Shown here: in pieces, positions 10,988-22,804 of the stretch
Layout of the letters: each line of letters starts with the position of its first letter
Numbering within the stretch: the stretch's first letter is position 1
Source: an uncultured Bacteroidales bacterium
GTDB lineage: Bacteria > Bacteroidota > Bacteroidia > Bacteroidales > Paludibacteraceae
DNA length: 64,000 nt
NCBI GenBank assembly: GCA_900316005.1
Contig: ONBH01000009.1
Span: forward strand, 1 to 64,000
Direction: 5' to 3'
The notes under the pieces: model-generated
What the model saw: the letters and a program-made list of their open reading frames with translations, nothing else
Databases searched by the model: none
What the model was told of the DNA's origin: nothing
Translations under genes and position numbers: made by a program

Positions 10988-13900
10988 CTACAGCTTTTTG
11001 CCGGTCAGATCGAAGCGCTCGCCATCACGAATGATGATGATGTGGCCGTCCTCGAATACCTTGTACACACCGGTATTGTCCATGGGCATCAGCACCACAG
11101 GCGATTCGATGGAACCGGCGTGGGCGTCGGGGGCATAGAGAACCTCTCCGCGAGCCTCACCACAGGGAGAGGGAGTCAGGATGGTGCCGTCCTCCGTCTC
11201 GAAGCGCAAGGTGCCGGAACGGTCGGATTGGATGGTGAGGAAATATAACCCCTCTCCGGCTCTTCCCTCAAGGGAGAGAGGAGTGGCCACGCCGACGAGT
11301 TCATCGCCGATATAGGCGCGAAGGGTGGTGTATGTTTGTTCTCCATTTTCGATGCGGGCAATCATTGTCATGTTGGATGCCGCAGCGGGGTTGGAGAAGG
11401 CATTTTCCATCGGTGTCGGGTTATCGGTTTCCGATGCCCGGTTGGCACGCAGCGGAGCCGAGGTCTTGGCCTTCTTAACATACTTCATCGTCACGTAGCC
11501 GTCACCCAAGCGGCGGAAGAGGTATCCCTGACCCGGACGGAGCGTCTGCAGCGAGCCCTCCCACTTGCCGTTCTCGGTGAAGACGGCGAACTGGGTGCGC
11601 GACTTGATGAGGTCGCCCACGGTGGCCTTGTCGTAGTAGTCGGCCAGGGCGTCGCGCGTGGACGCGGGTTCGCTGAGCAGGTAGGCGATGGCGTTCCAGC
11701 CCTTGCAGATGGTCAGCGTGCGCTGGTCGTCGGTGAGCGCCTTGCCCTCGACGGTGGTATTGAAGCCATCACGCGTGCGCATCATGTACATGTTCTTGTA
11801 GTTGACGGACGTGAGTTTACCCCTCCATGCCACGGTGTCGGGCGTGACGGTCAGTTCGGCGAACGACTGTCCGGAGGGCGACTTGATGAGGTCACCTTCG
11901 CTGAAGCCCGACTCGATGGGGAAGAGGTAATCCAGCTTATCGCTGATGGGACGGATGTACATGGATACCCAGTTCCAACCCTCCAAGAGGCTGAGTTGCT
12001 GTATCTCGCCGGCCGAGGTAGATAGGCGGATGGGCTCCTCGGGCGAGATGCCGCTGAGGGCATTGGCCTGGAATTTCTGCTTGACGGAAGGCATCAGGTT
12101 GTAAATCTTACCCGTGGATGCCTGCCAGAGCTTGAAGCTGAGCGGCTTGCCGTTCATCTCGGAGGTGCCGTAGATGGTCAGGTAAACGAAGCTGGTGCTG
12201 GTCTGGTTGGCAAAAGTGTTGTTGGCCAGGCCCACCATCTGTCCTTCGCAGAAGACAGCCACGCGGTCCAGCTCGTCGCTATCGAAGTGGCCGGCGCCGT
12301 ACTCGCTCTCGATGTACACCTGTCCGCGCAGCGTCATGCTGTTGGAATAGAGGTCTGTATTGATAGAACTGTCATCCCACGGGCAGACGGCCTCTACGGT
12401 GTACTCGATATAGACGGGTTCGCTCAGGCCGTTCTCGTCGGTGAGGTAGACGATGTCGGTGTAGAAGCCGACGGGCATCTCGAAGTCCGGGCAGAAGTAG
12501 ATGGGCTTGGACTCCATCGGGTCAATGGAACCATACTCGGGTTCGGCCGTCAGCCAGTCGGGCAGCGACTCAATCTTGAACTGATGGCGTTTGCCGGTGG
12601 TATTGATGATGAGGTCCTGGTTGCAGTAGTAGTTGCCGGGCTGGTTGGTCATGTCGCCATAGCGTACCCAGTACTCCTGCTTGTTCAGGTTCCAACGCAG
12701 GGCGCTGCGGTCCACGAAGGCCGTCCACGAAACGGGCGAGGGCATGGGGTTGCCGTGCAGGTCCTCCACATCGCGCACGGTGATGTAGATGCTCTGCTTG
12801 TTCACCTCGCTGTCCTGCATGCGCAGGTTGATGAGCAACTCCTCCTGGTTGAAGGTCCAGCCGAAGTTGAGTTTGCTGAGTAGTCCCTTGTCGCTGGTGG
12901 GCGCATAATCGACCTTGTCGGCATGGGAAGCGGCGTTGGCCGTCAGTACCAGCGGCACGACTTTGTCGAGAACCTGTCCGGTGGTGCGGTCGCGGAACTC
13001 ACGGCGGTCGTTCACGCTAAAGAACTGCTCCAATATGCCGTTGGCGTTGAGGCGCTGTTCCTCGAAGGGCAGATAGCCCATCAGACCCATCTCGTCGCCC
13101 ACGGGCGAAGCGTTGTAGTAGTCCTGCACCATGGATGCGGGCAGCGACTGCTCGAATACCGCCAGTTCGTCCACATTACCCTCGAAGCCTTGGCCGCCCA
13201 GGTACATCGCGCCGCTGACGGCAGCGAACTTGGTGGCGCCGGCGGTGTTGGTAATCTGTCCGTCGATAAATACGGCTGCCGTATTGTACGAACGATTGAT
13301 GGACAGCGCAAAATGGTGCCATTCGCCATCGTTCAGGCCGTCACCTACCTGCCACTGGTTGGCCGCGCTATGCAGCATGAGTTTGCCGTTTTCGAAGGCA
13401 AGGAGCGTACCGGTAGCGGTGCTGTCGGTGGCGAACCAACCGGCACGGAAGAGCGGGGCATCGGCAGACAGGGTCTTGAACCAGAACATCAGGGTCTCGT
13501 CGTAGTTCGCAGAGCGGGCCAAGAGGTTGCCTGCCAGCTCGACGGAGTCGTTCTGCAGCTTCAGCGAGATACCTTTCTGCAGTTTCCAGGTAGTACCCGA
13601 GAGGTAGAGGTTGGCGCCGTTGGCTTTGTCAATCATGACGTCGCCCTTACCCTCGTTCATGCGGTAGTAGGCCAGCAGTTCGCGTTCGTAGCCGGTCAGG
13701 TAGTGGCCGTTGGTGGCGGCTATCTCGTCCAGGGTGAGGGCCTTGGTCCAGAGGCGTGCCTCCAGCATGTCGCCGGTGTAGCCCAGACCGTAGATAAGGG
13801 GCGACGATGCGCTCAGCACCGTCTCGTCGGGCAGCGGACCCGTAGCGGGGTCGGTCACCTCGGTGGTACCGGTATAGAAGCGGACGGTCTTGGTATCGTT

Positions 13901-16900
13901 GTCAAAGGCCATGATGACGCGGGTGAACTCCAGCATGGGGGACTCCAGCTGACGCGAGGTGATGCGTTCCTGGCCCACCTGGGTAAAGAGGCGGTTGTCG
14001 GCCGTCTTACCGAACAGCAGGTTGACGCCCTCCACCACGGAATAGGAGAAGAAGGTCTCCTCATTATAGGGGTTGGCGGGGCGTACCAGCATATCCAGCG
14101 AGAACGACTTGCCCGTAAGCGAACGGCTGATCTCGGTGTGGGCATAGGAGTCGGCCGTGCCGTTGAAGTGGATGGCCGTTCCGGCGGTGATGCCGGTCTC
14201 GTTGGTGACGCCCTTGAGCTGGAAGTTGTTATCCTCGTCCAGGTAGTTGCCGGCGATGGGTTCCGAGAAGCGGAGCTTCAGGTTATCGCCGATGCCGAGG
14301 ATGGCGTTGGCGGGTTCCGCCTCGCCGAACAGGACGGGCGGACGGGTGTCCTTCACACCGCTGATGACGGGCGACGCCTTGCTTACAAAGCCCGAACCGA
14401 AGCGGCAGAACGATACTGCGCGCAGGTCGTATTCCTGCTCCATGGGGTCACGCTCGCCGTAGAAACGGAAGGGCTGGATGCGGCCGTTCTCTATCATGGC
14501 CTTGTTGCCGGTGGCCAGGTTGTAGAGGCTGTCGTCGGCGTAGAACGAGCACAGGTTCACCCACATCTCGTCGCTCTCCTTTGTGAGCTTGTACTGGAAC
14601 TCGATGTGGTCGAAGTTCTTGTGGTGGATATTGAATCCGTCGATGTCAACGGGCAGATAGTAGCCCACCGAGTCGTGCTGCGAGAGGGTGTTCATCACCC
14701 AGTTTGGGCGCGGCGAGGCGATGTTGACGGGGCTGGACTCGGGCAGGAAGTGTACGCTGAAGTTCAGGAACGCATAGGTCTTCATACAGTCGCCTACGTT
14801 GAAGTACAGCGACAGGTTTTCGTAGTCATCCACTTCGCCGCGTTCTACCTCCATCACCTGACTGATCACTTGTCCGGGCAGCAGGAAGTAATTCAATCCC
14901 TGCGAGAGCGGTGCGCCGTTGATATACACTTTCGCACCATGCGGGTTGCTGTCGCCGGTGAGCGAGAGTGAGAAACCGGTACCGGTGGACGGGAAGCCGA
15001 ACTGTACCTGACCTTCGTTCTTGAGCTCCAGATGGAACACGGCGCGCTGGTTGGACGGCACATTGCTGACCTCGTAGCGGTCGATGCTCATCTCCGGCAC
15101 GGCGATCGCCATGGTGGGGTTGTTGATAATGGTTCCCTTGTTGTAGAACTTGGTCTTCTCCTCCTTCTCATGGATACAGTAGGTAGCACCCGCCTCGGTA
15201 AAGAACACGTACGAGCCGAATACATCCCGGTTCTCGTCGTAATCCACGTTATCCATCACAACAGCCGTCTTTTTGCGCCAGAGGCTGTCCTGCGGAGCAC
15301 GATAGACGCTGACGGTGATGTCGCCCTGGTCATCGGGCGCGAGGGTGAAACCACACGATTTCTTGTTCGTCTGGTCCGTATTGGTGCGACTGCTGGAATT
15401 GAAACTGATGACCGGTTCCCATTTCATCTTGAATTTGGAGGTATTGGACACGGTTCCCAATTCCAGTTCGTTGTCGTCCTGGTCTTTCTTGGCCTTCAGT
15501 TGGTTCAGGGCCTCGGATACCGCAGTACCGAACACTTGGTCATCGCCGAAGAAGTCACCTAGGTTCTGGAACGTCTTCATAAGCATCTGTTGGCCCATCT
15601 GCGTAGCATATTTCTCGCCTTCGCCGGCAAACATATCGCCTTGCGGTGCCTCGTTGTAGTTGGCCGTAGCAGCGTAGTTGTCGGTGTGCGAGAGGGTATT
15701 GCCGAACGACACGCTGTACGTACCCACGTGCTGACCCGACTGGCGGGCGATTACTTTCTCGCGTTCGTTCAGTACAATCATACCCAACCAGTCAACAATG
15801 GTGTTGTCCAGCGCAGCGATACGGTCGGGATAGACCTTGGTGCTGCCCGTGGGCAGGAAGATGCGGTAGGAGCCGCGCGCCAAGGTGTCCTGCAGGCTGA
15901 CGGCGGTAGTGGAGTCGATGTACCAATATACCGGCTCGTTCATGGCATCCGCTGCCGCTTGTGCGGCTGTTGAGTCCGGGAAGCGCATCAGCAGGCTCTG
16001 GCGCTGCAGGGCCAGTTGCGGGATGACGGTCTCCAGAATGTAGTACTGCGAGTAGGCAAAGGTGTTCGAAACCACCGAACCCATCACCACTTTCTCACCG
16101 GTCACCAGATAGAACGGACGGCCGTCGGCACCTATGCCGCTGGCATGCACGTGTATCGTGCCCGCCTGGATGGCCGGCTGGCGTGCCTGGTAGAGCGAGT
16201 CGTTGATGATGGCTACCGACTTGGCCTTACCCGTCAGCTGACTCATCGTAGCGCCTACGAACACGTCGGCATTCGAACCGATGCCGGTCTTGTTTTTCTT
16301 GCTCGATGTGCTGATTCGTTCGCTCGTGGTGAACTGATAGGTGTATTTGTAACCCCACGACCATTCGTGTACGATAGGCACGGTGAAGGAGAACTGCTTG
16401 CTATTGGTGAAGTTGGCGCCGTAGTACGAACCTGCTCCTTCGGGTGCGGTAACGGTACCGATATCGTGGGACACGTTCAGTCCCCAGGTGGGTGTCAGGT
16501 TCACACCGGCTTTCCAGTCGTAACTCTCGTTGTAGGAATAGGTATAGGTGGTACCGTTCTCTATCCATGCCGAACTGCCGTTGCCACCCGGGTCGCGCAC
16601 GATATCCAGCAGGGTGACACCGGCTTCGGTTGCGGTCAGCTCGTTGCCTTGTGCTATATCGCCCAACACATAGGCGCGGAAGGCGTCGGTCTCCACCGTG
16701 TTACCCTCGTATTCCAGTGCAACGCTCACGGTTGACAGTGCATCCTCGCCGTAGGTCTGTGTCTGGATATGGTCGACGGTCAGCCATACGTTGCGGTTCT
16801 TGCCCTGTTGGTTCAGCTCGTAGGTGGTGTGGTTGGTAGAGTTGTGCATGCCGTTGCGCACCGTCACGGAGCCGCCGCGCTGCGGCACGCGGTCCAAGCG

Positions 16901-19900
16901 CTGCGTGGGGTCGTTGTTGTAGTAGTAGTCCTCGTAGGCCTGCGCCTCAAACTGGTAGCGGCGGTTGTAGTAGAAGAGGGGGTAACCCATCGTGTAGTTC
17001 ACCGTGCCGTCCTCCTGCTTGGTATATAAGGGCACTTTCTCCTTGATGTTGGGGTTGATGCTGTTGGCATCGATGCTCTGTTCGCCGTAGCCGTCCTGCT
17101 CCAGGCCGTACAGCATTTGCGTGAGGTGCACCTTGACGGGCGTACGGTAGATGCGGTCGTAGACGGCGTTGTAGTGCACGCTGTCACCCTCGCGCACCAC
17201 GTCGTAGGACTGCAGCGGCGCGTTGGTCAGATCGAAGTTCTCGTTGCCGGCGCCGGCTGTGAACAGCGTGGCGTAGCCTTGAGCCGAAGCCTGTATCACC
17301 TTGTACTTCACGGGGAAGAGATCCACCTGGTACTCACCCGTCTGTGGGTCGGGATGGATGGTGATGCGCTTCTTCTCAATGAGCATGTTGGTCGTTCCGA
17401 CGATGCGAGGCTGACTAGTTGAACTAGTCCACACCTCGTGGGCGATGGTCTGCTGAATTGTATCACGAGATAGGTCATTCGGGTCGTGCACAAAGTGGGC
17501 CACATTGTCGCCCTCCAGCTGCAGCACGAGCTGCACGTTGTCGCCTATATTGTTGGTACCCAAGCCGAAAGCCTCGGGCAGGTCACGCTGGTCGATACCG
17601 CCGGCTACACGGCCGACGAGGCGCACCTTGGTCATGTCGTAGAACCGCACGCCATCCAGCGCCTTGGTCAGGGCAAAGGTGTCGGTTCCCTCCTCCACAT
17701 GCAGGATGCCCTCGCCCTCGAAGGTATGGCCGGGCTTGAAGATACGCAGCGTGTAGGGCTGGCCCTTGGTGAGCGTCAGCTCGAAGTTTCCGTCCGTGCC
17801 GGTCTGCAAGGGCGTGCCGCTGCGCAGCAGCGTGTCGCCGTTCAGCGTGAACATGGCGCCCGCTACGGGAATGGTGGACAGCTTGTACAGCGCACGGCCG
17901 GTCAGGCGCGCCGTGGAGGTGTTCATAAAGCTGACACCCGTGGTAACGGCGTTGTCGGCCGAGAGGGTGACGCTGGCGCTTTGCGCGCTCGTATAATTAT
18001 AACTGAATAGCGCGTACGTGTGCGCGGGCACGACGGCGTACTGGGTACTAGCGCCTATATCGTAGCTGAGGCTGTCGAACAGGAATGTTCCATCCGAGCC
18101 TGTCGTCATGGTCTTGACGGTGGTGCCGTCCGGTCCTTCCAGTGCTACCGCCACACCCGCCATACCGCTGTTGTCCGGCATGAGGATGTTACCGCTTATC
18201 TCGCCGTAGGGCGAACGCCAGCCTTCGGCAGAGGCGCTGTTGTCAGAAGTCTTACCGTTGCAGTAGTAGTGCGCTGTGACAACGTACTCGTAGTGCTGAT
18301 TCGGTACGGCGGTCTCATCGAAGAACGAGTTGTCCTGACCGGTATAGATGGTATCTGCCGCAGCATCGCTGTTCTTCGCGACGCGCGTCAGCGAATAGCT
18401 ATCTACCGCTACGGACGAGGGCACCCAACTCAGCAGTACACCACGTTTCTGCTGCCCGACGGCTGCACCCTGGCTGGCAGTAAACGAGGTGATGGTTGCC
18501 GCCTCGTCGAAATAGAGGCTCGGGCCATGGATGGCTACCGGCTTTAGGAAATCAGTATTAAGCACTTGCAGGTCGCTGCTCGTCTGGTCAATGCGCACGG
18601 CATAGTTGATATGTGCGCAGGCAGTGTTTGCCACATCGGTAAAGCTTGCCATCCACGAGCCGTCCGCCAAACGGCGAATACTATCCTGCGGGATAATAAT
18701 CTCGCTGGTATAGCCCGTCTCCTGAATGGTACGCTGCAGCACCAACTTAGCCGTACGGTCCCACATACAGCGGCCGGAGGCATCCAATTGGTACTTAGCG
18801 TTTAGTCTATTGTATAAGTCCTCCTTAGCATTATCCAACCTTGAATCTATTTCAGGTGGCACTATTTTATTATATACAAAGCTATACAGACCATTAGAAT
18901 AAAATCTACTTGGTGCATATCCTTCTATTCGCACAGAGCCGCTGGTTGATATTAATAATTTTTGCCAAAAATATGCTGATCCGGCTCTTCCCTCCATGAT
19001 GCTATTAGCAGGAAACGTATATTCTCCGGGAGGCATATGTGTCCAGTCCTGTATAATCGAACCATCATCAGCATCCTTTATGCGTAGTTCTAAAATTGAT
19101 GTATCCATGACAGCTGTACTACAGTCCACACAAGGATTATAGGAAAGATTTATAGTCACATCCATGAGAACATGTTTTATAGAACAGTTATAGGTGCACA
19201 ACTCTCTCGGTATCAACGGAGTTGATGCCACCGGAGAATTGTCAAGATGAATATTGAAATGCACCTTGCGGTTGGTCTCGTATTCGGGATCCAAGGTATA
19301 ATCCGCCTGCACGCTATCCAGCGGAGCGAGGAAGTTGTGCTTTTCCAACGTATCCTTTTGCGAGAAATTCTCAACCCATCCCCAAATGGACGAGGAAGCA
19401 CGACGCACACGGTAATAAACAGGGATTGAGGGCTTACGATACTCATCGCTGTAAATAGATATGTCGAGACGAGCTAAAAAATTACCATTGTCATCTTTAA
19501 GTATATAATCTTCATCTGCTACGCTATATCTGCTAATAGTGGTGTCCAACTTTAATGCATTGCCCGACCACGTATCACGGCTTTTATCCACATACTGATA
19601 AATACCCGTCGAATCGCTGCGGGTCATCGGGAGAACAGCTAACTGCTTTGCATCCGAGAAGTCAGGCTGCGTGGCACGTTGCACCTCGAAGTAGTCACCG
19701 TCCACCAGGTCTCTCAGAGTCGGGTTCTTGATACGCCACTCCAATACATTGTTACCGGTATAGGTGCCCGTGGCATCCAGCTCTTCCGTCACCGTTAAGT
19801 CGTAAATGCGGTGGTAGGGTTTGATATCCTGCTTGGTCGTCACCTGCGTACTTATGACCTCTTGCGGTTTCTTTGTACGAATCACTTTGAATGTAGCGAA

Positions 19901-20728
19901 GAATTCCTGCACCGTGTCGGAAGTAGTGGCAATGATGTTGCCCGAACGTTCTTCGGCGAGGACCACCTCATTCGACTGCGATGTGGTGTACTCCTTGGGG
20001 TCGTAGAACACCGTATAAGGCACTGCCGCGCTGCCGTAGCCGGTCGGACCCAGCTCGTTCACAGCGTAGAAGTAGGGCGTGAACAGTTGTGCCTGTATGA
20101 TATTCTGACCACCCGACAGGCCGGAGGCAAGATGCCAGTCTTTGACATACTGCCTGTCGTTCGGCGAATAGAAACGGCACAAGTTAACATGCACGCCTAC
20201 GTCTATCGTCCGCTCTGCCAGCGCCTCTTGCGGATACCAGTCCATCTCCAGCCACGTTACATTGTCGTCGTCATTGTCCGACTCTTCGTTCTTGGTGACA
20301 AAATACGAGTGCCATTGGCCGTCGTCAGCCACCACGCTGCGTTTGCCGCCGTGGATGTTGGTAATCTCGATAATACCATGGCCGCTGACCATCTTGATCT
20401 TGGCGGTACCGTACGAATAACTGTCGTACTCATCCGCCAGATCTTTACCCGAAGAAATGTAGCAGATGGCTACATCTTTCTGGGGATTCACACCTTTCAG
20501 GTCGTAATAGATGTACGAATTCCACGAGCCTTCCTTCGTGCTGACAAAATAGCTGTAGCCCGCTTCACTCTCCGAGAAAAGAGGTATCTTGAAGTGAATC
20601 TTGTCCACTCCGGACGCGTACGCCGAGTAGTGTTTCGACTTTTCCAGGAAGTCATTCGCCCGGGCCTTCTGCGGCACTGCCAGCAGAGCGCATAGCGCGG
20701 CAATCAGTAGTAAAGATTTCCGTTTCAT
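10988..20728 (-). CDS. Giant secreted multidomain protein (FN3, carboxypeptidase-regulatory, LamG-like domains)
   Basis: A 3246-residue protein with a signal peptide (MKRKSLLLIAALCALLAVP). Approximate order: N-terminal beta-rich region; FN3-like domain at 745-835 (LLSWVPSSVAVDSYSL); carboxypeptidase-regulatory-like folds at 840-1010 (AGVAVALEGPDG, TGRALYKL); long unassigned middle; Big_5-like domain near 2130-2175 (LKLRFSEPI); two concanavalin/LamG-like domains at 2195-2365 and 2400-2545 (DGEWHHFALSINRS, FIDGQI); domain shared with the neighbouring lipoprotein near 2795-2890; a repeated 'GWNWVSMYI/GWNAIAYLL' region at 2915-3080; and a C-terminal tail IIIIRDGERFDLTGKKL. That tail resembles type IX secretion sorting ends in Bacteroidales, which is an inference. 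A surface adhesin or binding role is likely, ligand unknown. Two palindromic elements near the 3' end are translated in frame. Confidence 0.92.
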   Translation of the reverse strand: MKRKSLLLIAALCALLAVPQKARANDFLEKSKHYSAYASGVDKIHFKIPLFSESEAGYSYFVSTKEGSWNSYIYYDLKGVNPQKDVAICYISSGKDLADEYDSYSYGTAKIKMVSGHGIIEITNIHGGKRSVVADDGQWHSYFVTKNEESDNDDDNVTWLEMDWYPQEALAERTIDVGVHVNLCRFYSPNDRQYVKDWHLASGLSGGQNIIQAQLFTPYFYAVNELGPTGYGSAAVPYTVFYDPKEYTTSQSNEVVLAEERSGNIIATTSDTVQEFFATFKVIRTKKPQEVISTQVTTKQDIKPYHRIYDLTVTEELDATGTYTGNNVLEWRIKNPTLRDLVDGDYFEVQRATQPDFSDAKQLAVLPMTRSDSTGIYQYVDKSRDTWSGNALKLDTTISRYSVADEDYILKDDNGNFLARLDISIYSDEYRKPSIPVYYRVRRASSSIWGWVENFSQKDTLEKHNFLAPLDSVQADYTLDPEYETNRKVHFNIHLDNSPVASTPLIPRELCTYNCSIKHVLMDVTINLSYNPCVDCSTAVMDTSILELRIKDADDGSIIQDWTHMPPGEYTFPANSIMEGRAGSAYFWQKLLISTSGSVRIEGYAPSRFYSNGLYSFVYNKIVPPEIDSRLDNAKEDLYNRLNAKYQLDASGRCMWDRTAKLVLQRTIQETGYTSEIIIPQDSIRRLADGSWMASFTDVANTACAHINYAVRIDQTSSDLQVLNTDFLKPVAIHGPSLYFDEAATITSFTASQGAAVGQQKRGVLLSWVPSSVAVDSYSLTRVAKNSDAAADTIYTGQDNSFFDETAVPNQHYEYVVTAHYYCNGKTSDNSASAEGWRSPYGEISGNILMPDNSGMAGVAVALEGPDGTTVKTMTTGSDGTFLFDSLSYDIGASTQYAVVPAHTYALFSYNYTSAQSASVTLSADNAVTTGVSFMNTSTARLTGRALYKLSTIPVAGAMFTLNGDTLLRSGTPLQTGTDGNFELTLTKGQPYTLRIFKPGHTFEGEGILHVEEGTDTFALTKALDGVRFYDMTKVRLVGRVAGGIDQRDLPEAFGLGTNNIGDNVQLVLQLEGDNVAHFVHDPNDLSRDTIQQTIAHEVWTSSTSQPRIVGTTNMLIEKKRITIHPDPQTGEYQVDLFPVKYKVIQASAQGYATLFTAGAGNENFDLTNAPLQSYDVVREGDSVHYNAVYDRIYRTPVKVHLTQMLYGLEQDGYGEQSIDANSINPNIKEKVPLYTKQEDGTVNYTMGYPLFYYNRRYQFEAQAYEDYYYNNDPTQRLDRVPQRGGSVTVRNGMHNSTNHTTYELNQQGKNRNVWLTVDHIQTQTYGEDALSTVSVALEYEGNTVETDAFRAYVLGDIAQGNELTATEAGVTLLDIVRDPGGNGSSAWIENGTTYTYSYNESYDWKAGVNLTPTWGLNVSHDIGTVTAPEGAGSYYGANFTNSKQFSFTVPIVHEWSWGYKYTYQFTTSERISTSSKKNKTGIGSNADVFVGATMSQLTGKAKSVAIINDSLYQARQPAIQAGTIHVHASGIGADGRPFYLVTGEKVVMGSVVSNTFAYSQYYILETVIPQLALQRQSLLMRFPDSTAAQAAADAMNEPVYWYIDSTTAVSLQDTLARGSYRIFLPTGSTKVYPDRIAALDNTIVDWLGMIVLNEREKVIARQSGQHVGTYSVSFGNTLSHTDNYAATANYNEAPQGDMFAGEGEKYATQMGQQMLMKTFQNLGDFFGDDQVFGTAVSEALNQLKAKKDQDDNELELGTVSNTSKFKMKWEPVISFNSSSRTNTDQTNKKSCGFTLAPDDQGDITVSVYRAPQDSLWRKKTAVVMDNVDYDENRDVFGSYVFFTEAGATYCIHEKEEKTKFYNKGTIINNPTMAIAVPEMSIDRYEVSNVPSNQRAVFHLELKNEGQVQFGFPSTGTGFSLSLTGDSNPHGAKVYINGAPLSQGLNYFLLPGQVISQVMEVERGEVDDYENLSLYFNVGDCMKTYAFLNFSVHFLPESSPVNIASPRPNWVMNTLSQHDSVGYYLPVDIDGFNIHHKNFDHIEFQYKLTKESDEMWVNLCSFYADDSLYNLATGNKAMIENGRIQPFRFYGERDPMEQEYDLRAVSFCRFGSGFVSKASPVISGVKDTRPPVLFGEAEPANAILGIGDNLKLRFSEPIAGNYLDEDNNFQLKGVTNETGITAGTAIHFNGTADSYAHTEISRSLTGKSFSLDMLVRPANPYNEETFFSYSVVEGVNLLFGKTADNRLFTQVGQERITSRQLESPMLEFTRVIMAFDNDTKTVRFYTGTTEVTDPATGPLPDETVLSASSPLIYGLGYTGDMLEARLWTKALTLDEIAATNGHYLTGYERELLAYYRMNEGKGDVMIDKANGANLYLSGTTWKLQKGISLKLQNDSVELAGNLLARSANYDETLMFWFKTLSADAPLFRAGWFATDSTATGTLLAFENGKLMLHSAANQWQVGDGLNDGEWHHFALSINRSYNTAAVFIDGQITNTAGATKFAAVSGAMYLGGQGFEGNVDELAVFEQSLPASMVQDYYNASPVGDEMGLMGYLPFEEQRLNANGILEQFFSVNDRREFRDRTTGQVLDKVVPLVLTANAASHADKVDYAPTSDKGLLSKLNFGWTFNQEELLINLRMQDSEVNKQSIYITVRDVEDLHGNPMPSPVSWTAFVDRSALRWNLNKQEYWVRYGDMTNQPGNYYCNQDLIINTTGKRHQFKIESLPDWLTAEPEYGSIDPMESKPIYFCPDFEMPVGFYTDIVYLTDENGLSEPVYIEYTVEAVCPWDDSSINTDLYSNSMTLRGQVYIESEYGAGHFDSDELDRVAVFCEGQMVGLANNTFANQTSTSFVYLTIYGTSEMNGKPLSFKLWQASTGKIYNLMPSVKQKFQANALSGISPEEPIRLSTSAGEIQQLSLLEGWNWVSMYIRPISDKLDYLFPIESGFSEGDLIKSPSGQSFAELTVTPDTVAWRGKLTSVNYKNMYMMRTRDGFNTTVEGKALTDDQRTLTICKGWNAIAYLLSEPASTRDALADYYDKATVGDLIKSRTQFAVFTENGKWEGSLQTLRPGQGYLFRRLGDGYVTMKYVKKAKTSAPLRANRASETDNPTPMENAFSNPAAASNMTMIARIENGEQTYTTLRAYIGDELVGVATPLSLEGRAGEGLYFLTIQSDRSGTLRFETEDGTILTPSPCGEARGEVLYAPDAHAGSIESPVVLMPMDNTGVYKVFEDGHIIIIRDGERFDLTGKKL
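11140..11290. repeat. Pair of in-frame palindromic elements in the giant gene
   Basis: Two related elements about 95 bp apart (about 11140-11178 and 11248-11288) each have CCTCTCC at one end and GGGAGAG at the other. They encode the parallel peptides TPSPCGEARGEVLYA and TPLSLEGRAGEGLYF. These look like dispersed GC-rich palindromes captured within a reading frame. Confidence 0.7.
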
Positions 20729-20743
20729 ATAGGGTGTTATTTT

Positions 20744-20778
20744 AAATTTTAGATTGTAGATTTTAGATTGTAGATTTT
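20744..20778. repeat. Heptamer array (AGATTGT / AGATTTT)
   Basis: AAATTTT followed by alternating AGATTGT and AGATTTT (five units), ending 2 bp before the stop codon of the 50-residue secreted peptide gene and leading to the giant gene start. Confidence 0.85.
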
Positions 20779-20779
20779 A

Positions 20780-20932
20780 CTACCCCATCAAATCGACAGA
20801 CATGACATAGAGTAGGAAGTACTGCCCGGATTGTGTATGCTGCCCAGCGGCATCCGGTGTCGTATCCCATGCCTTTGCGCCCATCGCCATCAGCAGCACA
20901 CAAAAAATGATGGTCAAAAATTTAGAGTTCAT
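20780..20932 (-). CDS. Small secreted peptide, 50 residues
   Basis: The minus-strand ATG at 20932 opens a 50-codon frame ending in TAG (20780-20782). It has a convincing signal peptide (MNSKFLTIIFCVLLMAMGAKA) and a short mature part (WDTTPDAAGQHTQSGQYFLL then YVMSVDLMG). It lies between the pyrophosphatase and the giant gene on the same strand. From about 15 nt before the ATG to codon 9, its DNA matches the start of the pyrophosphatase gene in 36 of 43 positions. That supports the start but also allows a duplicated leader that is not functional by itself. Function is unknown; it could also be a truncated gene. Confidence 0.55.
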   Translation of the reverse strand: MNSKFLTIIFCVLLMAMGAKAWDTTPDAAGQHTQSGQYFLLYVMSVDLMG

Positions 20933-21004
20933 TTTCGTCAAAAATTACCAAAAATTATCCAACAATTATTGCGATGGATAAGTTCGTCAACAATATTACC
21001 TGCG

Positions 21005-22078
21005 TCATTGCTGCCCCGACTTCCACTGCTTGATACCTTCCGTGATGGGCGGTACGACCTCTACCTTGCGGATGGACAGGTACTTGGTTACGATGCAGTC
21101 GTCCGGCGTGGCGGTGGTGTGAAAACCGTACTCCGCCACTTGCTTGGCACCCTCGCCGCAGAACGGCAGGTGGGTGACATCGGCATCGCGGTCGCCGATC
21201 ATCAGGAACAGCATATCCAGTCCTCGCTGCTCACGTGCGGCAGGCATGAGAGCCCGCATACGGGCGCACATATCCTCCACTCCGGCTACCTTGCCGGCAA
21301 ACACGCTGCCTATACCTACCTTCACACCCTCTATCTCATATTCCTTGAAGTCGGAGTAGAGGATCTCGATGTCGGTCATCCCCTCATACGAGACGCGTGC
21401 ATCACGCGCGGCGGCGTAGTAGGCTCCGATATCCGTTATGTCGGATAGCTCTAACAGCTTGCCGAACAGGCGGCGGTCGATGTCGGTGGTGGTGACTGCG
21501 CTCAGGCTGTCGGTGTCGGACAGCAGTCCCGTGAGCAGCAGCCGTGCGTCCGTCGCGGTGGGTTGCATACCAAGCTGCTCGTACATCGTAGCGATCACCG
21601 AGCAGGTCGAACCGATAGGCATAGCGTAGTAGAACACCGGACGCGATGTGGTAACCGATCCTGTGCCGTGGTGGTCGATGACCTGCAGGATGTTCGCTGA
21701 TGGCATACCGTTCACCGATTGCGCAAACTCGCTATGATCCACCATGATCATGTTCAGCCCTGTGGCGTCATCGAGTACTGCCGGCGCAGCTATGCCGGCC
21801 TGCTTCAGTGCATACAGCGGCTCGCAAACCACCTTGCCCGCCACACGCGCCTTGGCGTTGATACCCAGCCGTTGCAGCAGCGACGCATAAGCGATAGCGG
21901 ACATCACGGCGTCGCAGTCGGGACTCTTGTGCCCCACTACCAGCACGCTGTCGCCGTAGTTCATGCTCGTCAGCACCTCGCGCAGCGCTGTCGGCTGTTC
22001 CGGTTCGTTGGTCTGCTTGCAGCCGGCTGCGAACAGCAGCATGGCGCACGAGACGATGGCCAAAAATTTAGTTCTCAT
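21005..22078 (-). CDS. Lipoprotein family II (DHH) inorganic pyrophosphatase-like protein
   Basis: About 357 residues. The DHH/DHHA2 motifs of manganese-dependent pyrophosphatases are all visible: GHKSPDCDAV (about 47), VDHSEF (about 113), VIDHHG (about 133), LLSDTDSLSAVTTTD (about 187), and the C-terminal active-site strand IRKVEVVPP, equivalent to the SRKKQVVPP of this family. The N-terminus (ATG at 22078; the upstream TTG is not needed) is a lipoprotein signal ending FAAGC. The enzyme would therefore act outside the cytoplasm, unusual for a family normally found inside. The signal-coding region is nearly duplicated in front of the 50-residue peptide gene downstream. PPi hydrolysis is inferred from motifs; another phosphoester substrate is possible. 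Confidence 0.85.
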   Translation of the reverse strand: MRTKFLAIVSCAMLLFAAGCKQTNEPEQPTALREVLTSMNYGDSVLVVGHKSPDCDAVMSAIAYASLLQRLGINAKARVAGKVVCEPLYALKQAGIAAPAVLDDATGLNMIMVDHSEFAQSVNGMPSANILQVIDHHGTGSVTTSRPVFYYAMPIGSTCSVIATMYEQLGMQPTATDARLLLTGLLSDTDSLSAVTTTDIDRRLFGKLLELSDITDIGAYYAAARDARVSYEGMTDIEILYSDFKEYEIEGVKVGIGSVFAGKVAGVEDMCARMRALMPAAREQRGLDMLFLMIGDRDADVTHLPFCGEGAKQVAEYGFHTTATPDDCIVTKYLSIRKVEVVPPITEGIKQWKSGQQ

Positions 22079-22198
22079 TTCAGTCAAATATTACCAATAT
22101 ATACCAATATTACGATGATCAAGATTCAGTCAAAAAAGTCCAAAAAAGATTCAAAAAAGAAATAATTTGGGGAACATTTTGGGTCTTTTTTGACTTAA

Positions 22199-22804
22199 CT
22201 ATTCTTTCACCGTGATCACCAGCGACATATCGCAATTTTTCAGGATCTCCACCATCTTGTCCTCATCAAAGGCGATGCACCCGCCGGTGTAGCCCTTGGT
22301 GCCCTTCACGTGCACGAAGATCGCACTGCCCTTCGGATAGATGCACTCCTTGTTGAAATCCGTCTCTATGCCGTAGTTGTACTGCGGCTGGTAGGAGTAC
22401 ATCTCCTCGCCCTTGCACGGATGGTGCACCACGGCAGTGTCAATGATCGTGTTGTAGTACTCGCAGTCCTCGTCGCAGGCAAACGTTGAGGGCGTGATAT
22501 CTTTATACGGCATCTTGGTGCCCGGGTTCGGCTTGATACCGAACGCCGACAACGGCCGCAGCGTGCCCGTAGGCGTCTTGGCGTCACCCTCACCGGTCTT
22601 GCCGATACCGTTCTTGCCGATAAACACATCGGTCACAAACAGCACCTTGCCGTCAACAGTCAGACGTGCCTTGGCTGAGCTGCCTTGTACATCATATACC
22701 TCCAGCAGTTGGCTGTTAGCGGTGTTCTTGTCCTTACACGAAGTAAAACTTGCGCCGCATAGAATCAGGATGGCGGCCAGCATCCATTGCTTGCTTGATT
22801 TCAT
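22199..22804 (-). CDS. L,D-transpeptidase-like (YkuD) lipoprotein
   Basis: About 201 residues starting at the ATG at 22804, with a lipoprotein signal (ASFTSC, Cys about 23). The catalytic YkuD motif is HVKGTKGYTGGCIAF (His about 164, Cys about 175), and GKTGEGDAKTPTG near residue 70 is typical of the fold's N-terminal strand. Such enzymes crosslink peptidoglycan or attach proteins to it; some homologues have other roles. The spacing and short length match the stand-alone YkuD group in Bacteroidetes. It has its own promoter and heptamer repeats in the leader, and is followed after about 120 bp by the pyrophosphatase gene. Confidence 0.88.
   Translation of the reverse strand: MKSSKQWMLAAILILCGASFTSCKDKNTANSQLLEVYDVQGSSAKARLTVDGKVLFVTDVFIGKNGIGKTGEGDAKTPTGTLRPLSAFGIKPNPGTKMPYKDITPSTFACDEDCEYYNTIIDTAVVHHPCKGEEMYSYQPQYNYGIETDFNKECIYPKGSAIFVHVKGTKGYTGGCIAFDEDKMVEILKNCDMSLVITVKE

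What the first reader, a model, noticed from the sequence alone, without database searches (positions are those of the whole stretch)
21005..22078. Family II pyrophosphatase predicted to be an exported lipoprotein
All DHH/DHHA2 active-site motifs are kept, but the protein begins with a strong lipoprotein signal (FAAGC). Soluble pyrophosphatases are cytoplasmic; an envelope-anchored one implies PPi or another phosphoanhydride outside the membrane, perhaps from wall or polysaccharide polymerisation.
Basis: partly seen in the sequence, partly recalled or inferred. Interest (0 to 1): 0.58.

Follow-up and report, generated by a model that had tools for sequence, protein, structure and literature searches.

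The report
Exported branch of family II pyrophosphatases
A rumen bacterium carries a pyrophosphate-splitting type of enzyme with a tag that should send it out of the cytoplasm, and related tagged enzymes in other bacteria form their own branch, which suggests an enzyme job outside the cell that has not been described.

Summary
Confirmed, and larger than first reported. ORF 22078-21005 (minus strand, 357 aa) is a full-length DHH/DHHA2 family II pyrophosphatase-type protein behind a convincing lipoprotein leader. Export is not a one-off: eight proteins from two other genera of the same family carry lipoprotein-type leaders, three clostridial relatives an N-terminal hydrophobic anchor, a Selenomonas plasmid protein a signal peptide. 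In a tree built without the leader these 13 are one branch (100/100), apart from 10 soluble and 13 CBS-type cytosolic enzymes. Core catalytic residues are kept, but the cytosolic signatures DHHR (23/23 cytosolic, 0/13 exported) and RKKQ (20/23, 0/13) are lost. No other recognised pyrophosphatase family was found in the window's 98% complete genome, but half of 61 congeners also lack the membrane type. A ~1.5-kb block with this gene is >99% identical in three genomes of the genus while the downstream gene is ~60-75%; its leader matches another lipoprotein gene in a fourth. Best reading: an extracytoplasmic PPi (or other phosphoanhydride) hydrolase. Substrate and exact location are unproven; a cell-wall source of PPi is not supported.

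The parts
21005..22078 (-). DHH/DHHA2 family II pyrophosphatase-type lipoprotein gene, 357 aa
22022..22078 (-). signal peptide, codons 1-19 (MRTKFLAIVSCAMLLFAAG), lipobox FAAG-C
22019..22021 (-). predicted lipid-modified cysteine, codon 20
21527..21946 (-). DHH domain, residues 45-184 (H50, D54, D56, D114, D135-H136-H137, D188)
21038..21400 (-). DHHA2 domain, residues 227-347 (K245, R337, K338)
22055..22097 (-). leader element around the start codon, repeated at 20909-20951; no other copy in the window at up to 3 mismatches
20780..20932 (-). 50-codon secreted-peptide ORF; its start resembles that of a 202-aa secreted protein in the matching locus of congener G1453 (L102), so probably a truncated remnant (by eye)
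20738..22223 (.). block over 99% identical in three genomes while the gene downstream is about 60-75% identical
22199..22804 (-). YkuD-domain (L,D-transpeptidase-like) lipoprotein gene upstream
10988..20728 (-). 3246-aa protein with laminin-G domains and a signal-like start, downstream on the same strand

Best explanation
The gene encodes a metal-dependent phosphoanhydride hydrolase of the family II pyrophosphatase type that is exported by Sec and anchored by lipid at its N-terminus, so that it acts in the periplasm or at the outer face rather than in the cytoplasm. It belongs to an extracytoplasmic branch of family II pyrophosphatases found here in Paludibacteraceae (lipoproteins), Clostridia (N-terminal anchor) and Selenomonas (signal peptide). 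It most likely splits PPi, or a small phosphoanhydride such as tripolyphosphate, released around the cell, giving Pi that can be taken up. Shown: domains, core active-site residues, leaders, one branch in the tree, and a near-identical block in three genomes. Inferred: export in the cell, PPi as substrate, Pi supply as benefit.
For: Both domains and fold; a profile of the branch scores solved family II PPases at E 1e-55 to 1e-71, against 5e-10 for yeast exopolyphosphatase and 1e-6 or weaker for other DHH enzymes. H50, D54, D56, D114, H136, H137, D188, K245, R337, K338 are all kept in the window protein. 13 of 13 branch members have a hydrophobic N-terminal segment (15-residue mean 1.6 or more) that the cytosolic ones lack at their likely starts. 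Tree without leader columns: exported branch 100/100 and in 100% of 200 bootstrap trees. Three kinds of leader in two phyla on one branch point to selection for export. Six of eight lipoprotein carriers of the other two genera also hold a membrane PPase. The lipoprotein leader and its upstream DNA are shared with another lipoprotein gene at the same place in G1453 (128 of 177 bases, E 7e-26), the match ending at about codon 29.
Against: No activity or localisation data exist. Signature positions of cytosolic enzymes are lost, so substrate or kinetics may differ. The NCBIfam equivalog cut-off is not reached. Rumen fluid is, from general knowledge, rich in phosphate, which weakens Pi scavenging as the benefit. 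The window leader lacks the acidic run of a Bacteroidetes surface-export signal (CKQTNEPEQ), so a periplasmic rather than surface location is as likely. The window's own genome lacks any other recognised PPase, so a cytosolic role cannot be ruled out from the genome alone. Codon 39 is an ATG that would give a cytosolic start.
Confidence: 0.68

Rival explanations
1. The exported branch has changed its substrate: it no longer serves PPi mainly but splits another external phosphoanhydride (short polyphosphate, nucleoside polyphosphate or a phosphorylated cofactor).
For: Arg after DHH is lost in 13 of 13 exported and kept in 23 of 23 cytosolic enzymes; RKKQ in 0 of 13 against 20 of 23; eight of 13 exported have DNH for DHH, changing a residue that is, by recall, a metal ligand in the B. 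subtilis enzyme.
Against: Fold and profile match PPases far better than exopolyphosphatase or nucleotide-acting DHH enzymes; the core substrate residues are kept.
Confidence: 0.25
2. The protein works in the cytoplasm: the true start is internal (codon 39) or the leader does not act, and it is this genome's housekeeping pyrophosphatase.
For: It is the only hit to any of three PPase families in G000; the ATG at codon 39 lies 11 codons before the first active-site histidine.
Against: The leader is shared with another lipoprotein gene; relatives without that Met also have leaders; in two other genera the signal codons are largely kept at the protein level with silent changes; 31 of 61 genus genomes lack the membrane PPase and 61 of 61 lack family I, so lacking a known PPase is usual in this genus.
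Confidence: 0.07

Closest known systems
Soluble family II inorganic pyrophosphatase (B. subtilis PpaC, PDB 1k23, 1wpm, 2iw4)
   Same: DHH and DHHA2 domains, fold, metal and substrate residues
   Different: 29% identity; leader and lipobox; DHHG for DHHR and IRKVE for SRKKQ
CBS-domain pyrophosphatases of Clostridia
   Same: same catalytic domains; nearest cytosolic group in the tree
   Different: carry an inserted part (frames of about 550-600 aa; identity as CBS type recalled, not domain-searched) and no leader
Selenomonas ruminantium pSRC7 WP_014431014.1 'DHH family phosphoesterase'
   Same: 34-35% identity, signal peptide, same branch
   Different: no lipobox; lies between a two-partner secretion transporter gene and a filamentous adhesin gene
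Yeast exopolyphosphatase (PDB 2qb6)
   Same: DHH superfamily; matches the model with TM 0.67/0.62
   Different: profile E 5.5e-10 against 1e-55 or better for PPases

Membership tests
Family II inorganic pyrophosphatase | DHH plus DHHA2 domains over the full length | tested here: met
   both over gathering cut-off
Family II inorganic pyrophosphatase | family II PPase fold | tested here: met
   TM 0.79/0.91 to 2iw4, rmsd 2.4
Family II inorganic pyrophosphatase | metal and substrate residues (B. subtilis H9, D13, D15, D75, H97, H98, D149, K205, R295, K296; roles recalled) | tested here: met
   all kept in the window protein; the H97 position is Asn in eight relatives
Family II inorganic pyrophosphatase | C-terminal SRKKQ signature (named in PMC11210485, passages) | tested here: not met
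   IRKVE; RK kept, KQ lost
Family II inorganic pyrophosphatase | NCBIfam PRK05427 equivalog cut-off | tested here: not met
   225 of 283 bits
Family II inorganic pyrophosphatase | PPi hydrolysis with Mn, Co or Mg | not testable with these tools
   needs purified protein
Family II inorganic pyrophosphatase | soluble and cytoplasmic | tested here: not met
   lipoprotein leader (prediction)
Bacterial lipoprotein | charged start, hydrophobic core, lipobox with Cys at 15-35 | tested here: met
   Cys20, rule recalled; no SignalP run
Surface-exposed Bacteroidetes lipoprotein | acidic export signal after the Cys (K-(D/E)2 or SDDDD, PMC5080379 passages) | tested here: inconclusive
   window CKQTNEPEQ lacks it; relatives CEDEND, CEEDDE, CEKEDD, CEKDDD are acidic

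The most novel reading that the evidence does not exclude
There is a separate extracytoplasmic lineage of family II pyrophosphatases, spread between Bacteroidota and Bacillota of gut and rumen by horizontal transfer and refitted with host leaders on arrival, whose active site has been retuned for a phosphoanhydride found outside cells.
Probability: 0.4. Interest if true: 0.72.

Novelty: new variant of a known kind. Interest (0 to 1): 0.57.

Why it matters
Soluble pyrophosphatases are treated as cytoplasmic enzymes that pull biosynthesis forward. A branch that is consistently exported means that PPi or a like compound is worth splitting outside some anaerobes, and gives a set of proteins with shared residue changes on which substrate and location can be tested directly. 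It also bears on how bacteria without any recognised cytosolic or membrane pyrophosphatase handle PPi.

Tried and rejected
Artefact of start choice: rejected, leaders recur in relatives and the window leader matches another lipoprotein gene. Chance lipobox: unlikely; the rule is crude, and L021 (CTSC) fails it while clostridial L046 passes it in what looks like an anchor. Common Bacteroidota trait: rejected; 1 of 393 Bacteroidales genomes at E 1e-20 with the profile, which was the window's own, and 10 of 200 in the family by DHHA2, 9 over the cut-off (the tenth, G400, 705-aa frame, was not taken further). In the phylum sample 16 of 395 matched, 15 of them weakly (E 1e-7 to 7e-4), and these 15 were not examined. 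Phage origin: the first IMG/VR scan gave no relative; the profile scan gave one at 27% identity, not examined; 15 phage records match, the eight listed ones at 29-31% from residue 45 on. Enterobacterial plasmid DHHA2 proteins, three of the four read beside eno and crcB genes: cytosolic type, used as controls. Conserved gene neighbourhood as a clue to function: none found across the branch. Wall link through YkuD: left open, local to one genus. Cytosolic HAD-type PPase in G000: not tested, no suitable query.

Rows dropped: 53 of 394 clostridial-order genomes matched; 3 were exported type; of 27 other loci fetched (L047-L073) a pattern filter recovered 24 and 13 of these went into the tree; the 10 soluble rows come from plasmid records only. 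The three near-identical proteins L018-L020 and the identical-bodied pair L023/L024 count as separate rows in the k-of-13 figures.

Literature: ten searches, none showing an exported family II pyrophosphatase; six phrases such as 'periplasmic pyrophosphatase' and 'secreted pyrophosphatase' gave 0 papers. The library holds open-licence papers only. Seen: passages of PMC11210485, PMC7226116, PMC5080379, PMC10987575; search listings with abstract starts for the rest. PMC11210485 has 0 uses of 'secreted' and 'lipoprotein'.

Full report
What is there. The ORF at 22078-21005 on the minus strand encodes 357 aa: MRTKFLAIVSCAMLLFAAGC, a short linker, then a DHH domain (45-184) and a DHHA2 domain (227-347). 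Sequence and fold place it with family II inorganic pyrophosphatases: solved PPases are the best matches (2eb0, E 2.8e-39), and an AlphaFold2 model made from two sequences (window and L029; pLDDT 76.9, pTM 0.74) matches the B. subtilis enzyme at TM 0.79/0.91. It stays below the NCBIfam equivalog cut-off, 225 of 283 bits.

The leader is unlikely to be chance. A PROSITE-style lipobox rule (recalled) passes 6 of 46 main ORFs and 0 of 114 spurious ORFs of the window, and 881 of 100,000 shuffles of this N-terminus. SignalP was not available.

The organism. The near-identical gene is held in records titled 'uncultured Bacteroidales bacterium' (L027) and 'Paludibacteraceae bacterium isolate RGIG10178 Yak_Rumen' (L028). 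The window lies in G000, 2.27 Mb in 56 contigs, 98.3% complete. The family name Paludibacteraceae for the window's own genome rests on these records.

Export runs through relatives. In 200 genomes of the family, DHHA2 was found in 10, in 9 over the cut-off: the window's genome and eight genomes of two other genera. All eight of those proteins begin with a lipoprotein-type leader followed by an acidic run: CEDEND, CEEDDE, CEKEDD or CEKDDD; seven pass the rule and L021 (CTSC) does not. A rumen clostridial MAG (L029, 38% identity) and two further clostridial genomes (L045, L046) have a charged start and a long hydrophobic segment, read as a signal anchor. Selenomonas ruminantium plasmid pSRC7 encodes a relative with a signal peptide. 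In the clostridial order 53 of 394 genomes matched at E 1e-20; three matches stood apart at E 1e-113 or better and the rest were at 3e-58 or weaker, mostly in frames of 540-700 aa, read here as CBS-type enzymes.

One branch. A tree of 36 rows with the leader removed (rows cut six residues before the first motif; 13 exported, 13 CBS-type, 10 soluble) put the exported ones on one side of a branch with support 100/100 and in 100% of 200 bootstrap trees. The root is not inferred, the soluble set is small and from plasmid records, and the Selenomonas row is about as close in identity to some cytosolic enzymes (35-37%). Within the branch the window protein joins the clostridial rows weakly (87/70) and not the other Paludibacteraceae, so it may have come by transfer.

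Active site. H50, D54, D56, D114, H136, H137, D188, K245, R337 and K338 line up with the catalytic residues of B. subtilis PPase (roles recalled). Other motif positions differ by group: Arg follows DHH in 23 of 23 cytosolic and 0 of 13 exported rows; RKKQ occurs in 20 of 23 and 0 of 13. The eight other Paludibacteraceae rows read DNH for DHH. These are shared changes of unknown effect.

Other pyrophosphatases. G000 has no hit to membrane PPase PF03030 or family I PF00719, and this gene is its only DHHA2 hit. In the genus, PF03030 was found in 30 of 61 genomes (9 of 26 good-quality ones) and PF00719 in 0 of 61. Of the eight other carriers, six have PF03030, one as a partial match. So the exported enzyme is often present beside a membrane PPase, and lack of a recognised PPase is common in the genus. 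What clears cytosolic PPi in such genomes remains open.

Recent movement. In L027 and L028 the stretch matching window 22223-20738 is over 99% identical (5 differences in 1486 bases for each, summed from the table), while the gene downstream is mostly about 45-80% identical per 100 columns (BLAST pieces 69-76%) and the YkuD gene upstream 76-100%. L027 and L028 are the same contigs as in G1442 and G602 (lengths 182,778 and 6,523). In G1453 the place after the YkuD gene holds a 190-aa protein with an LD-carboxypeptidase C-terminal domain whose upstream DNA, signal and linker match those of the window gene (128 of 177 bases, E 7e-26), the match ending at about codon 29. The simplest reading is that a phosphatase core was joined to a resident lipoprotein leader and then spread among species; direction is not shown.

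Neighbours. YkuD-domain lipoprotein gene upstream, a 50-codon secreted peptide and a 3246-aa laminin-G protein downstream. The Selenomonas gene lies between a TpsB-like gene and a filamentous adhesin gene. Other relatives have unrelated neighbours, such as rng-like and rpe-like genes in one genus (named by eye). No neighbourhood is shared across the branch.

How it most likely works. Exported through Sec, lipid-anchored, folded outside the cytoplasm with two divalent metals, it splits PPi or a small phosphoanhydride to Pi. Export in vivo, substrate and benefit are inferred. Wall polymerisation as the PPi source is not supported by any result here. Relatives with acidic runs resemble the published surface-export signal (PMC5080379, passages); the window leader does not clearly.

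Novelty. Ten literature searches gave no description of an exported family II pyrophosphatase; a 2024 review of microbial pyrophosphatases uses neither 'secreted' nor 'lipoprotein' (PMC11210485, passages). The fold is known; the exported branch appears to be a new variant.

Noticed in passing
window 20738-22223; L027, L028: Block over 99% identical in three genomes of the genus while the downstream giant gene is far more diverged: recent transfer or recombination.
   Followed up: partly
G000 and genus: About half of the genus has no recognised pyrophosphatase of family I or membrane type; how cytosolic PPi is cleared is unknown.
   Followed up: partly
L102 13816-14388: Congener gene with the same lipoprotein leader joined to an LD-carboxypeptidase C-terminal part, apparently shortened; leader swapping between lipoprotein genes.
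   Followed up: partly
L018-L025: Eight of eight exported relatives in two genera have DNH in place of DHH, changing a residue recalled as a metal ligand.
   Followed up: partly
L032 (pSRC7): Secreted DHH/DHHA2 protein gene lies between a TpsB-like transporter gene and a filamentous adhesin gene.
   Followed up: no
L083-L085: Enterobacterial plasmid clusters of a DHHA2 protein with universal stress protein, enolase and crcB fluoride exporter genes, read as fluoride resistance.
   Followed up: no
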